From Halichondria panicea (taxonomy: Eukaryota > Porifera > Demospongiae > Suberitida > Halichondriidae): 64,000 bases of DNA. The first letter of the stretch is position 1. Each line of letters opens with the position of its first letter. Under the pieces are notes generated by a model. The model saw nothing but the letters and a program-made list of their open reading frames with translations, was not told the DNA's origin and did not search any database. Both the position numbers and the translations under genes were made by a program. The DNA lies in NCBI RefSeq assembly GCF_963675165.1, contig NC_087381.1, forward strand, positions 558,001 through 622,000, in the 5' to 3' direction. Positions 390 through 64,000 of the stretch are shown one piece after another.

Positions 390-2349
390 TCAGTTAACAG
401 AAGTTGGTGAGCAGGCATCTTGTTTATTTTTGACGGTTACATCTGTCGAAGTAGTATTAGTAACTACGGTTACGGGAGTCCTGCGTGTGAAACGTGCGAG
501 GCCAAGCAGGCAAATTCCTTTCCTTATTAAACCAAAAATAATTGAGATGACAGCTCCAACTACGGCGATGATGATGAAAGGAATGGCCACTCCGAGACCA
601 ACCGAGACGCCAGATGAAGTGGATGCTGCATAAAATATCAGCGTTGATAAGCATGCACGTGTATCCATGGAGTATGTATTTCAGGTATATACACACATAA
701 TTAGGTGCATGTCATCGAGATATTTGCAACTTAATTCCGAGCTAATAGATCTCAGTAATGCACAATAGTGATATACTATACTATTAACTCTTACTTCCAG
801 TACAGACCAAGGCCACATCTTCTGAATGGTTGCAATCTTCTACTCCGATAGGGCTAGCAGGACAATTAATGAGTCTGCTCTCAGATCCTGAGCAACGAAG
901 ATCGTCCAGCCATATCCGAGTGAATGATGAAGCTCGTAAGAATCTATAATTTAGGAGGAAATGATTAAGAGTGCAATATGGGATTAATAGCACGAACAAT
1001 ATTAATGGCAAGGCTTCTAATTGTGCAAGGCGTATATAGCCCGAGTGCTATTAACTTTCCCAGTGCTAAATTATGAGTGCATTATCCATTATACTATTGA
1101 TTTCTATGATGCAGTTCTCCGCAGTTTAATTCAAACGCGGCTGTTATTCGAAAACAAGCCTCCTTGCAAATACTCACTTGACGACGTACAATTACTGATA
1201 CGGTCTGTACAAACTCCAGTCACTAATTATATAGCTATATACGATTCATGACAGTTTGCACAAGCTATAATTATAGAGTTTTATGCGAATACAAACAGTA
1301 CAATCAATACATTAACTTAAAGACGAATGTTTCAATGGCAAGTCATTAGCTAAATATATTATTATTATCTGGTGAGCTTACACGCTCACCCTAGCGTTCC
1401 AACATTTCCATATCGACTGTAGCTTGAGAACCCTAGTTGACGACAAGCCACATTTGCATCGTTTGGCCTGAAGCTGTCGTCACACACTGTCCCCCATTGT
1501 CCCCTGTAATAGACCTCCAGTCTGCCAGAGGAGCCTCCTGTTAGGCCTGAGCTGCCTACCAGCCTCAGGTCTCCATTTGCTAAACAATTAACACATTTAA
1601 CTGGCTATCATAAATAATGGCTAATTGGACTGTATATAGATCTATACATATACAGGTATATAATCTTACATGCAGTACAGATCAAGGCCACATCTTCTGA
1701 ATGGGAGCAATCTCCAAATCCGATAGCGTTAGCAGGGCAATCAATGAGTCTGCTCTCAGTTCCTGAGCAGCGAAGCTCATCCAGCCATGTCCGAGTGGTT
1801 GATGAAGCTTGGGAGAAACTATATAGGGAGAAATGAATATTGCCACGCTGATTGAATCACTCACAGATGTGGACACTCACCCTAATGTTCCAACTGTTCC
1901 GTATCGAGTGTAGGTTGAGTACCCTAGTTGACGACAAGACACTCTTGCATCATTTGAGCCAAAGCTGTCATCACACACTGTCCCCCATTGTCCACTGTTA
2001 TACACCTCCAGTCTGCCAGAGAAGCCTCCTGTTTGGCCGAAGCTGCCTACCAGCCTCAAGTCTCCACTTGATTGTCCTGTATATATATATACAGACACAA
2101 AAATTATGAAGAATACAACAATTTCACTCAATTGTGAGACCGATTTTGCAATTTAATTATCGTGACAGCATTACATGGAGTCGTTCGTATAATTATGCAA
2201 CAGCTATTTTTTAATAATTATGTTGAGTAAAAAAAAAAGCTATAGCGTATGGAAATACCAGATGTAGAGTTAATCAGCATGAGCTCACCTCCAACAGCCC
2301 AAACCAGGCTCAAGAAAGTAACTGACTTCCACAGCAAATAACTCATCAT
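390..2349 (-). CDS. SRCR gene 1: signal peptide, two SRCR domains, TM, short tail
   Basis: Six-exon single-pass receptor, predicted 326 aa. Exons in reading order: 2289-2349 (signal peptide, [10 protein letters not shown]), 1881-2076 and 1670-1818 (SRCR 1, residues about 21-135), 1390-1579 and 795-943 (SRCR 2, about 136-248), 390-625 (TM and tail). Lengths sum to 981 nt, all joints are GT-AG and the frame stays open. Each SRCR shows the motifs GRLEVY, WGTVCDD, ACRQLG, WLDELRC, ESRLI.CPA and DVALVC, with six cysteines and no C1/C4 pair, which is the group-A pattern. The first C-half was not reported as its own open frame but reads cleanly on the minus strand. The TM helix is about residues 255-280. 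The tail is short ([10 protein letters not shown] to SPTSVN) and lacks the proline repeats of most neighbours. Likely a cell-surface binding receptor; the ligand is unknown. Confidence 0.85.
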
Positions 2350-2984
2350 TGACAATGCTTCAGGTATGATTATGTGAAGGTCCCATGCACACACCTCTTT
2401 AAGTAGTGGTCTTATATTACTGCACATGCGCACTAGATCTATACAATGAAGATGTACTGCATACAGCATATCTTAATCTGTTTATAATTAATCTTATTAT
2501 AATTAATCTTATTATTAATCTGTTTTTTTTTATTTTATCTTATGTTTGTGTCCTTACTTGTATAATTATAGCTGCAATAAACCATATTTATGAGTCAACA
2601 TTGAAAATATAATTAATTATTAATAACACTGATCAAATTTTTGACAAGATTACAAATTCAGTTTCCATCATTCGTATCAGCTTAGGACAATCGATTTTTT
2701 ATATGAGCGATGGCCTGCTGTACGATAATAAATTAAGTGCAAAGATATTTATTTTTCATTCTGTGTCTCTCCGCTGTAGGCCGTAATTTCTACAAACCAA
2801 CTTTGATTTGTGCTACAAACAATGCAAGAAGATAAACTCAAACACAGGGCCAAACATAGTTTATAGCTTGTAACCTATGCTTGCGAGTGTACATCACAGT
2901 TTACAATGTTGTTGAATTTTAGTTCATCTACAATAGTTTCCTTCATAGTTTACAAAGAAAGTTGATAGTGTACACCGTTGTATA
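2350..2984. other. Upstream flank of SRCR gene 1
   Basis: No gene is visible. The sequence matches about 34107-34580 upstream of gene 5, so the two genes share their putative promoter region. I see no clear TATA box close to the start codon here, unlike genes 4, 6 and 8. Confidence 0.5.
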
Positions 2985-61690: not shown

Positions 61691-61926
61691 AGTATCATAA
61701 GTCCAAAGCCGAAAAATAACTAAATTAATAATGGTCCCTATACACCAGTATATGCATGCGTAAGTGCTTTATCATAATTATTCTGACAACAAATTTAATA
61801 TCAGAAGGAGAGATGAAAATTGAGCTATGAGACATCAAGTATATACAGCAGATATACTAATTTGCTATCACTATCGGTCAATAGGTACTTGAATTGTGGG
61901 CATTATACCCATGCATGCATATATAG
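61691..61926. other. 3' flank of SRCR gene 12
   Basis: AT-rich, nearly the same as 44851-45109 downstream of gene 8. No gene. Confidence 0.5.
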
Positions 61927-64000
61927 TTATCCCGGATATGGTGGAGGGGCTTCTCCGCCAGAAAAATACAGTGCAGGGGGCGGTTTTTCAGGGGCTGGGG
62001 GTTGCTGAGGATAAGGGGCTGGGGGTTGCTGAGGGTAGGACGTGTGGTACGAGGGGGCGGAATATTGTCCAGTCGGGTAGGTAGGTGCTGGTTGAGGCCC
62101 ATGCATATTTGGAGGGGGAGGCTGGTTAGAGTTTAGGGATCTTTGGTTCATTGAGTAGGCTGTATTTTGTGTATTTGTGACGGTCGTTGTAGCCGACGTA
62201 GTGTTAGTGTTTAGATTCCTGGGTGGGGGGCGATTCAGGCAACGCCTTCTTATGATACTACGGGACAAGACGATAATCACAAACACGAAAATGATGATGA
62301 TGACAGGAACAGACACTCCAACACCGATAGATACGCTGGACACCAATGCTGCATAAAAATAAAGTATGTCGGTGCATGCATGTCGATGTGGTCTGTAATT
62401 TAGATATTACAGTCATATTTATGTATAGTGGTCAGTGACATGGCTACCGTGTGCATTACGCATGCATCACTACGTGGCGGTTGCTGTATAGTGGTTATGG
62501 CCATCGTGCTTCGTCTTAATAATTTGAGTTGCATGTGTGGGGCCACGCCCACCTACGAGTTGATGGCTGAAATGTGGAAAAACAAGCTTCGCTTTATGAC
62601 TGGAACTGGACCTGAGAGCTCTAACAAAACAGATGGAGCATCCATATAGCACTTATACACATTGTACATGTATACATATATAGCTGTTTAGATGAGCATG
62701 GCCACGGACCAATACGTTAACATGCACGAAGTGCAGCTGTAGAATTATGCAGTGCGTGCGTGACGTACGTGGCTGTAACCACTTTGAAAAAAATCACATT
62801 TGTTAGGCTGCAACCGCTATATGGTTGAATGTTTTACCGCTAGGTGGCAAGTATTTTGCAACCACGGAGGACAAATGCTCAAGTAGCTATAGAGCATGGT
62901 TATAATCCTGCATGGGCTATACTATAATTATGTGAATTTCGAGCTAAAAGGTCTCAGCCATGCACACATTATACTAGTATTGACTTACATCCAGTACAGT
63001 ACAAGGCAATATCTTCAAAACGGAAGCAATCTTCAACTCCGATAGCATTAGCAGGACAATCAATGAGTCTGCTCTCAGATCCTCGACAACGAAGCTCGTC
63101 CAACCATGTCCGAGTATCATATGATGTAGGTCGGGAGAAACTATAGGAAAGAAATGATTAGTATTAGTTATTGCCCAGCACGAGTGCAATATATGGCATG
63201 TTGCATGAGGGAGCCTACAATAACTAACTTGTTGCCCAATGACGTCAAAAGTACTCTTCTGATTGGTCAAGTTATTCCCTATAAATCTTAATATTTTGAT
63301 AGAATTCATTAGTAAATTTTTAGTTTCTTCCCACAACTAGTGTAAAAGAAAAGGGACCAAATGAGTTATTGGGATGGTGGATATCGTAAGTCCAAAAGCA
63401 ATGCAACATGCCATATATGGAGCACTGGATTGCTTTGATCTGCCCACTCACTGGGCAACAATTACAAATATTGAACAAACTATATAAATTAAAGTTCGAG
63501 AAGTGTACAAACTGAATGCAATGATATATATAATTATGATGGGTGTGATCCGATGTCAAGTCAGTAAATTTACTCAATGATGAACCGATAATACTGTGAC
63601 ACTCACCCTAGCGTTCCAACTGTTCCGTATTGAGTGTAGGTTGAGAACCCTAGTTGACGACAAGCCACTCTTGCATCACTTGAGTCAAAGTTGTCCTGAC
63701 ACACTGTCCCCCATTGTCCATTGTAATAGAACTCCAGTCTGCCAGAGGAGCCTCCTGTTCGACCTGAGTTGCTTACCAGCCTCAGGTATCCATTTGGGCC
63801 TAAACAACACAATTCATTTACAGAATATAATTATTGACTATGACTATGTATATAGTAATACATACACTACTTGCACTATACAAATTCTTACTTGCAGTGC
63901 TTGCAAAACTTGCAGCACAGATCAAGGCCACATCTTCTGAATGGGTGCAATCTTCAACTCCGATAGTGTTAGCACGGCAATTAATGAGTCTACTCTCAAT
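61927..64000 (-). CDS. SRCR gene 12, 3' part: at least two SRCR domains, TM, Pro-rich tail
   Basis: Partial; the gene starts beyond the right edge. Visible exons in reading order: C-half of an upstream SRCR from the edge to 63892; next SRCR 63607-63799 + 62989-63140; TM and tail 61927-62348. Frames and splice sites are intact. The N-half reads [20 protein letters not shown], and the C-half [19 protein letters not shown], then [12 protein letters not shown] region [26 protein letters not shown], and a tail with [20 protein letters not shown] ending [10 protein letters not shown] (PPPY). Closest to genes 6 and 8: the last intron shares the conserved region (about 62430-62840) and the empty site for the 753-bp insertion of gene 8. 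Confidence 0.8.

What the first reader, a model, noticed from the sequence alone, without database searches (positions are those of the whole stretch)
390..64000. Twelve-gene, single-strand array of modular SRCR receptors
Seen: twelve TM/tail exons and eleven signal-peptide exons alternate strictly along the minus strand, each pair enclosing one to six two-exon SRCR domains. Known: SRCR receptors are expanded in sponges and other invertebrates and bind microbial or self ligands in several animals. Inferred: this is a rapidly turning-over receptor cluster, a candidate for microbe sensing or self/non-self recognition in a sponge. The domain count, tail type and integrity vary from gene to gene, as expected of a diversifying recognition locus.
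Basis: partly seen in the sequence, partly recalled or inferred. Interest (0 to 1): 0.75.

Follow-up and report, generated by a model that had tools for sequence, protein, structure and literature searches.

The report
Large array of sponge-like SRCR receptor genes
This stretch is about one third of a long row of at least 32 related cell-surface receptor genes in what is probably a sponge; such receptor rows are already known in sponges and thought to sense microbes, but here the end of nearly every signal-peptide exon is frozen at the DNA level in a way that protein coding alone does not explain.

Summary
In detail: twelve TM/tail and eleven signal-peptide (SP) exons alternate on the minus strand, with 1-6 two-exon SRCR domains per gene. 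The window is part of a longer array: 32 SP exons, one strand, about C5:554.7-740.5 kb; 59 sites genome-wide match the SP exon end. Five of twelve window genes are damaged and one has a cut tail; two collagen-like genes and exon relics interrupt the row. The domains are group A SRCR (six cysteines, two exons, phase 1-2-1). In 22 of 29 array genes with a long tail the tail end is PPxY. Domain blocks duplicate inside genes. Diversifying selection is only suggested, in the second SRCR exon; a standard likelihood-ratio test looked overwhelming but failed its simulation control. SRCR tandem arrays are published for Amphimedon (PMC10855680), so this is a large new member of a known kind. The unexpected part is the last ~24 nt of the SP exon: fourfold-site difference 0.012 against 0.108 in the rest of the exon and 0.13-0.27 in other exons. 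'Sponge' is likely, not proven; microbe sensing and self/non-self roles are untested here.

The parts
61927..64000 (-). Gene 1, 3' part (SP lies beyond the window at C5:626,569); SRCR exons 63607-63799 and 62989-63140, long tail 61927-62348; a further B exon straddles the window end
58464..61066 (-). Gene 2: SP 61006-61066, one SRCR domain, long tail cut by an in-frame stop
54283..57074 (-). Gene 3, damaged: SP 57014-57074, three SRCR domains (second A exon with stop), tail frameshifted
51244..53644 (-). Gene 4, damaged: SP 53578-53644; first SRCR exon lacks its acceptor AG, second has a stop and a frameshift; tail open
45110..50566 (-). Gene 5, damaged: SP 50509-50566, four SRCR domains (second A exon frameshifted), long tail 45110-45522
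39709..43611 (-). Gene 6, damaged: SP 43551-43611, one SRCR domain with frameshifted A exon, long tail 39709-40232
35321..38659 (-). Gene 7, open: SP 38602-38659, two SRCR domains, TM, PPxY tail (391 aa)
31740..34106 (-). Gene 8, open: SP 34046-34106, two SRCR domains, short tail 31740-31975
25301..30947 (-). Gene 9, open: SP 30890-30947, six SRCR domains (a three-domain unit duplicated), PPxY tail (864 aa)
19485..23744 (-). Two collagen-like genes inside the array: N-terminal hydrophobic stretch, collagen repeats (PF01391 in the right-hand copy), C-terminal domain without Pfam match
8822..16059 (-). Gene 10, open: SP 15999-16059, three SRCR domains, PPxY tail
4258..7116 (-). Gene 11, damaged: SP 7056-7116, SRCR exons and TM/tail exon broken
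390..2349 (-). Gene 12, open: SP 2289-2349, two SRCR domains, short tail 390-625
43546..43574 (-). Example of the frozen SP exon end with donor (24 nt of exon, 5 of intron); within 2 mismatches in 31 of 32 array SP exons, including all 11 of the window
44769..44849 (-). Relic of an SRCR B exon between genes 5 and 6
61426..61692 (-). Relics of an SRCR B exon and a short-type TM exon between genes 1 and 2

Best explanation
A head-to-tail array of at least 32 genes for single-pass membrane receptors with group A SRCR ectodomains, in a probable demosponge. SHOWN: SP exon, mostly one to eight phase 1-2-1 SRCR modules, one TM/tail exon; growth by gene duplication and by duplication of blocks of modules inside genes. 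INFERRED: the domains bind polyanionic microbial or tissue surfaces through the SRCR cation site, with different site-2 chemistry from domain to domain; multivalent binding is followed by recruitment of WW-domain proteins (such as NEDD4-type ligases) to the C-terminal PPxY, hence internalisation or signalling; short-tail genes would bind without that output. The repertoire would serve sorting of microbes (food, symbiont, pathogen).
For: Spliced models of genes 7 and 12 each match PF00530 in two stretches (whole-protein E 2e-51 and 4e-54), and one domain matches solved CD163, MARCO, SCARA5 and DMBT1 SRCR domains. Six-Cys pattern: 73 of 75 A exons have two Cys, 79 of 80 B exons four (exons that passed the score filters, out of 94 A and 94 B minus-strand hits). 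The central cation ligand (D1020 of SALSA SRCR8) is Asp in 73 of 75 domains; the outer site-2 positions vary (D1019 position acidic in 51, E1086 position in 47, all three acidic in 29; residue roles from PMC7043408, abstract and passages). The tail ends in PPxY in 22 of 29 long-tail genes of the array, reading frame not checked. Block duplication. Sponge SRCR genes respond to microbes or MAMPs in published work (PMC6208332, passages).
Against: No transcript, ligand, expression or individual-variation data. PPxY in a proline-rich tail may be partly compositional, and 7 of 29 long-tail genes lack it at the end. Sites with a selection signal are not enriched near the cation ligands along the sequence (Fisher p 0.82-1.0). 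Pooled pN/pS is 0.57-0.63 for SRCR exons, and pN exceeds pS in only 305 of 2775 domain pairs. Five of twelve window genes are damaged.
Confidence: 0.55

Rival explanations
1. Self/non-self (allorecognition) receptors: different individuals carry different sets, and tissue contact is judged by them.
For: Large, fast-changing, single-strand array with domain-number variation; the largest part of PRR genes in Halichondria panicea is expressed individual-specifically (PMC8242945, abstract and passages).
Against: No polymorphism data; nothing in the sequence tells microbial from self ligands.
Confidence: 0.12
2. Cell-adhesion or matrix receptors (as proposed for SRCR proteins of the sponge Geodia in work that I recall and did not read), expanded without an immune role.
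For: An SRCR domain of SALSA binds heparin (PMC7043408, passage); multivalent ectodomains; collagen-like genes lie in the array.
Against: Adhesion receptors seldom need dozens of divergent copies; turnover and pseudogenes are more typical of recognition loci (general knowledge).
Confidence: 0.15
3. Largely neutral duplication and decay of a redundant receptor family; diversity without selection for diversity.
For: Five of 12 window genes damaged and one tail cut; pooled pN/pS 0.57-0.66; the M1a/M2a signal is reproduced by null simulations with recombination and site-rate variation; A-exon site counts are within the nulls.
Against: B-exon site counts exceed all 40 nulls at three thresholds; conserved Cys, D1020-equivalent and SP block.
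Confidence: 0.15
4. The array acts partly as one long transcription unit: SP exons, modules and tails are combined by alternative splicing, also across gene borders.
For: The outer boundaries read are phase 1, so any SP, module and tail would join in frame; gaps between genes in the window are ~0.6-2 kb apart from the 9-kb gap between genes 9 and 10; one SP-plus-tail unit without detected SRCR exon (SP at C5:632,339); frozen SP donor region.
Against: Symmetric phases are common in extracellular modules (general knowledge); no complementarity of 11 nt or more to the SP block on the transcript strand of the window; no transcripts.
Confidence: 0.08

Closest known systems
SRCR superfamily arrays of Amphimedon queenslandica (Peng et al. 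2024, PMC10855680)
   Same: Tandem SRCR genes; in the largest cluster, genes with two, four or six SRCR domains, and a figure legend that marks signal peptide and TM; duplication of one- and two-domain units; 158 of 296 genes in tandem (abstract, passages and section 2.7 seen).
   Different: There mostly three exons per domain and many seven-Cys group C domains; here two exons and six Cys. Clusters of 2-7 genes are shown there, with nine genes on the richest scaffold; here at least 32 in ~186 kb. The parts that I saw do not mention a frozen SP exon end or PPxY tails; I did not read the whole paper.
Group A SRCR receptors of vertebrates (MARCO, SR-A1, SCARA5)
   Same: Six-cysteine domain encoded by multiple exons (definition in PMC4491621, passage); significant matches to solved domains.
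   Different: Those are trimeric type II proteins, mostly with a collagen stalk (recalled); these look like type I proteins with tandem SRCR modules and PPxY tails.
CD163 / DMBT1 (SALSA)
   Same: Tandem SRCR ectodomain; matches; central cation ligand retained.
   Different: Those are group B, eight Cys and one exon per domain (group definition, assignment recalled); site-2 acids vary in this array.
Sea urchin SRCR expansion
   Same: Hundreds of genes, 253 of 359 in tandem (PMC10855680, passage); individual-specific expression (cited in PMC8242945).
   Different: One exon per domain in nearly all of the cluster described; an independent expansion according to PMC10855680.

Membership tests
SRCR superfamily | PF00530 match above its cut-off with conserved cysteines | tested here: met
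   (172.8 and 181.5 bits for genes 7 and 12, cut-off 26.1)
Group A SRCR | six cysteines per domain | tested here: met
   73 of 75 A exons with 2 Cys, 79 of 80 B exons with 4 (exons passing the score filters)
Group A SRCR | domain encoded by more than one exon | tested here: met
   (no transcripts); definition from PMC4491621
Sponge group C SRCR (Peng et al. 2024) | seventh conserved cysteine (C1) | tested here: not met
   definition
Cation-dependent SRCR ligand binding (SALSA type) | site-2 acids D1019, D1020, E1086 | tested here: inconclusive
   all three acidic in 29 of 75 domains; D1020 position Asp in 73 of 75; mapping by motif is mine
PPxY/WW-domain-coupled receptors | PPxY motif in the cytoplasmic tail | tested here: met
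   tail end PPxY in 22 of 29 long-tail genes; the 2 short-tail genes lack it; WW binding not tested
Polymorphic recognition locus | copy-number or allelic variation between individuals | not testable with these tools
   one assembly only
Sponge origin | sponge-only marker gene | tested here: inconclusive
   Peptidase_C1 search: one Cys-to-Ser cathepsin-like frame, but its best PDB matches are cathepsins L and silicatein alpha ranks last of 60 shown; NACHT expansion and only two weak innexin matches are compatible

The most novel reading that the evidence does not exclude
The last ~24 nt of the SP exon plus the donor form a cis-acting nucleic-acid element (splice-enhancer, regulatory or recombination signal) shared by the whole dispersed receptor family, kept nearly identical by selection on the nucleotide sequence while ectodomains diverge, and used to control which receptor or which module joins the common leader.
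Probability: 0.3. Interest if true: 0.7.

Novelty: new member of a known kind. Interest (0 to 1): 0.45.

Why it matters
Sponges hold hundreds of SRCR receptors whose ligands and regulation are largely unknown. A chromosome-scale array with complete exon chains gives a test bed: cation-site variants can be expressed domain by domain, and PPxY versus short tails compared. The frozen SP exon end, if it is a cis element, would be a handle on how such an array is expressed or recombined.

Tried and rejected
Diversifying selection by M1a/M2a: 2dlnL 114 (A exon), 106 (B), 33 (tail), rejected as evidence because 16 of 16 null simulations with recombination and site-rate variation gave 70-201 (16 nulls with recombination alone gave 0-24). 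A FUBAR-like site test at 0.9 was unstable (up to 18 and 21 false sites of 64 in nulls without and with recombination). At 0.99 the B exon (10 of 49) exceeds the null maximum of 5 in 40 runs; the A exon (5 of 64) does not exceed the null maximum of 7 (nulls without site-rate variation).

Selection signal clustering at the cation site: not found along the sequence. Compensation between the two outer site-2 acids: Fisher p 0.20.

RNA hairpin at the SP donor: z-scores -0.95, 0.63, 0.45 in three genes, no support. Pairing partner for the SP block: no reverse-complement match of 11 nt or more on the transcript strand of the window. Gene conversion as sole cause of the frozen block: disfavoured, because identity falls towards chance ~20 nt into the intron and ~20-40 nt upstream of the start codon (ungapped comparison, so indels contribute), and the 5' half of the same exon diverges normally; not excluded.

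Silicatein as a sponge marker: inconclusive. Rfam: no match at gathering thresholds.

Structure prediction was not tried: the SRCR domain is spliced and the tool takes proteins that the DNA gives letter for letter.
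Full report
WHAT IS THERE. The window is C5:558,001-622,000 of a 131-Mb, 39-contig assembly. In the window, all SRCR, SP and TM/tail exon matches are on the minus strand. The eleven SP exons encode leaders like M(M)[19 protein letters not shown]. Each gene then has one or more pairs of exons: A (WGTVCDD...VACRQLG, two Cys) and B (WLDELRC.GTESRL..C...C...C, four Cys), and one terminal exon with a hydrophobic TM stretch (by eye) and either a long proline-rich tail (ten genes; where intact mostly ending APPxYPG/N) or a short tail ending CSPTSVN (genes 8 and 12). 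Where read, phases are uniform: SP ends in phase 1, A runs 1 to 2, B 2 to 1, the tail starts in phase 1, so each two-exon domain is a symmetric 1-1 module. Spliced models of genes 7, 8, 9, 10 and 12 are open from start to stop (for genes 8, 10 and 12 the script listed the tail exon twice, so only the part up to the first stop is read). Gene 1 is open by exon as far as it lies in the window. Gene 2 has an open SRCR domain and a cut tail. Genes 3, 4, 5, 6 and 11 carry stops, frameshifts or a lost splice site.

EXTENT. I annotated C5:548,001-742,000 with HMMs built from window exons: 32 SP exons, all minus, from C5:557.0 to 740.5 kb; the last tail ends at 554.7 kb. The only plus-strand hits are two short A-exon fragments. 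Two genes have eight domains. One SP (C5:632,339) is followed by a tail with no SRCR exon detected. The SP at C5:657,865 is followed by divergent SRCR exons and no long tail. Genome-wide, a 29-nt pattern of the SP exon end with donor finds 59 sites (39 exact; the reversed pattern finds 0) on C1, C5, C7, C12 and C17. 31 of the 32 array SP exons lie within 2 mismatches of the reference block (17 exact, 13 with one, one with two); the remaining one, at 652,469, differs near the donor. One pattern hit in the array (C5:735,990, 3 mismatches) is not an SP by HMM. Outside the array I looked at nine loci, all of which hold SRCR exons; the other sites were not inspected. A long-tail query finds 43 matches on C1, C5, C12 and C17, a short-tail query 9 on C1, C5 and C7. 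PF00530 gives 213 matches, a lower bound because 150 of 1364 candidates were scored.

HOW IT GROWS. Among 75 paired domains of the 194 kb (built from the 75 A and 80 B exons that passed filters), the nearest relative lies in the same gene for 30, in the adjacent gene for 11 and further away for 34; random expectation is 4.4%, 5.6% and 90%. Gene 9 carries a three-domain unit twice (94.4% over 1.5 kb). The gene with SP at 694,276 carries a four-domain unit twice (97.9% over 1.35 kb of it). The genes with SP at 637,658 and 646,880 are 97.8% identical over 3.4 kb.

SELECTION. Pooled pN/pS is 0.57 (A), 0.63 (B), 0.66 (long tail) and 0.51 (SP). pN exceeds pS in 305 of 2775 domain pairs; the higher ratios among pairs with low pS are biased by binning on pS and are not used. 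A home-made M1a/M2a test gives very large values (114 and 106 for the two SRCR exons), but simulated data without positive selection, with one recombination breakpoint and site-rate variation, gave 70-201 in 16 of 16 runs, so it is discarded. A FUBAR-like test that lets synonymous rates vary gives 10 of 49 B codons, 5 of 64 A codons and 0 of 119 tail codons at P>0.99. Nulls for the B exon (recombination and site-rate variation) reach at most 5 in 40 runs; at 0.9 they reach 13 against 18 real, at 0.999 they reach 1 against 5. Nulls for the A exon (no site-rate variation) reach at most 3 (12 runs without recombination) and 7 (12 with). The tail set is smaller (25 sequences), and five random 25-sequence subsets of A exons give 0-5 such sites, so the contrast with the tail is weak. 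I read this as suggestive for the B exon only.

LIGAND SITE. Residues that coordinate cations in SALSA/DMBT1 SRCR8 were taken from PMC7043408 (abstract and passages) and mapped by motif position (my mapping, aided by the recalled order of the SRCR8 sequence). D1020 is Asp in 73 of 75 domains. The D1019 position is acidic in 51 of 75, otherwise mostly Gln, Asn or His; the E1086 position is acidic in 47, otherwise mostly Gln; all three are acidic in 29. D1019A abolished ligand binding in SALSA, so domains of this array may differ in cation use; that is inference.

TAILS. Of the 31 array genes with a match to the long-tail HMM, two are the short-tail genes 8 and 12; of the other 29, 22 have a PPxYP end followed by a stop within the gene's stretch, in some frame (frame continuity was not checked, and gene 3's end lies in a shifted frame). 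An earlier narrower motif search had recognised 20 ends, 18 with PPxY.

THE FROZEN EXON END. Aligned at the donor without gaps, the 11 window SP exons are 98% identical over the last 20 nt, 86% and 76% in the two preceding 20-nt bins, 47% in the next, and near chance further upstream and from ~20 nt into the intron. In 40 SP exons from five chromosomes (32 of the array, 8 from elsewhere; one further copy, L015, was dropped for a low score), synonymous divergence in 8-codon windows is 0.030-0.051 for the four windows nearest the donor and 0.37-0.46 for the three first windows of the same exon. The very last window includes a codon split by the donor; the lowest window wholly inside the exon has 0.035. 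First A exons have 0.304, first B exons 0.378, tails 0.428. The four lowest of 244 windows are all from the SP end, and none of the 230 non-SP windows is below 0.10. The eight SP exons outside the array were found through the 29-nt pattern and are therefore biased; the 32 array exons were found by protein HMM. On those alone, counting only codons wholly inside the exon, fourfold third-base differences are 0.012 in the last eight codons against 0.108 in the twelve before (the one copy with a shifted end, 652,469, is included as aligned), and 0.162 (A), 0.134 (B) and 0.269 (tail); A exons show no such drop at their own 3' end (0.183 in the last eight codons). So the constraint appears to act on nucleotides and is specific to the leader exon. 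Copies are related, so these pair counts are not independent events. The cause is unknown; no hairpin and no pairing partner was found. Two damaged genes, 4 and 11, still carry the block.

WHAT IT IS LIKE. By definition (PMC4491621, passage) these are group A SRCR domains. Tandem SRCR genes of this general build are described for Amphimedon (PMC10855680, abstract, passages and section 2.7), where domains mostly span three exons and many have a seventh Cys, neither of which holds here. Sponge SRCR genes respond to microbes in several experiments reported or cited in PMC6208332 (passages), and PRR expression is strongly individual in Halichondria (PMC8242945, abstract and passages). A search for sponge, scavenger receptor, PPxY and cytoplasmic tail (three of four terms) found 26 papers, of which I saw the listing of 8, none with PPxY and sponge together; one for synonymous constraint in SP first exons listed one unrelated paper. 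Neither proves absence from print.

TAXON. No named record was matched, so the organism stays unidentified.

VERDICT. Observation right; array larger than stated; receptor reading sound; immune or allorecognition role plausible but untested; kind already known in sponges. The new, unexplained element is the nucleotide-level freeze of the SP exon end.

Noticed in passing
window 19485-23744 (-): Two related collagen-like genes with an N-terminal hydrophobic stretch and a C-terminal domain (VDGLSFTHGTPRTHIWTFAAG...) without Pfam match sit inside the SRCR array.
   Followed up: partly
L014-L017 (C1:1.19-2.40 Mb): Similar four-SRCR genes with the same leader lie dispersed over more than 1 Mb of C1.
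   Followed up: partly
C5:632,339-630,706 (L003, L002): A leader exon followed directly by a TM/tail exon with no SRCR exon detected.
   Followed up: no
L022: 624 and 2282: Two leader exons 1.7 kb apart with no SRCR exon between them.
   Followed up: no
window 39752-39945, 51308-51415, 8907-9103: Some tail exons carry 27-90-bp tandem repeats, so tail length may change by repeat-unit slippage.
   Followed up: no
G000 C7, C13, C14: Many NACHT matches in clusters, many with open frames over 800 aa.
   Followed up: no
L028 (C9:2,570,213): Cathepsin-L-like open frame in which a Ser stands before the Trp of the catalytic motif, as recalled for silicateins; partial.
   Followed up: partly
C5:741,981-741,450: A divergent SRCR gene flanks the array on its right side, perhaps the array border.
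   Followed up: no
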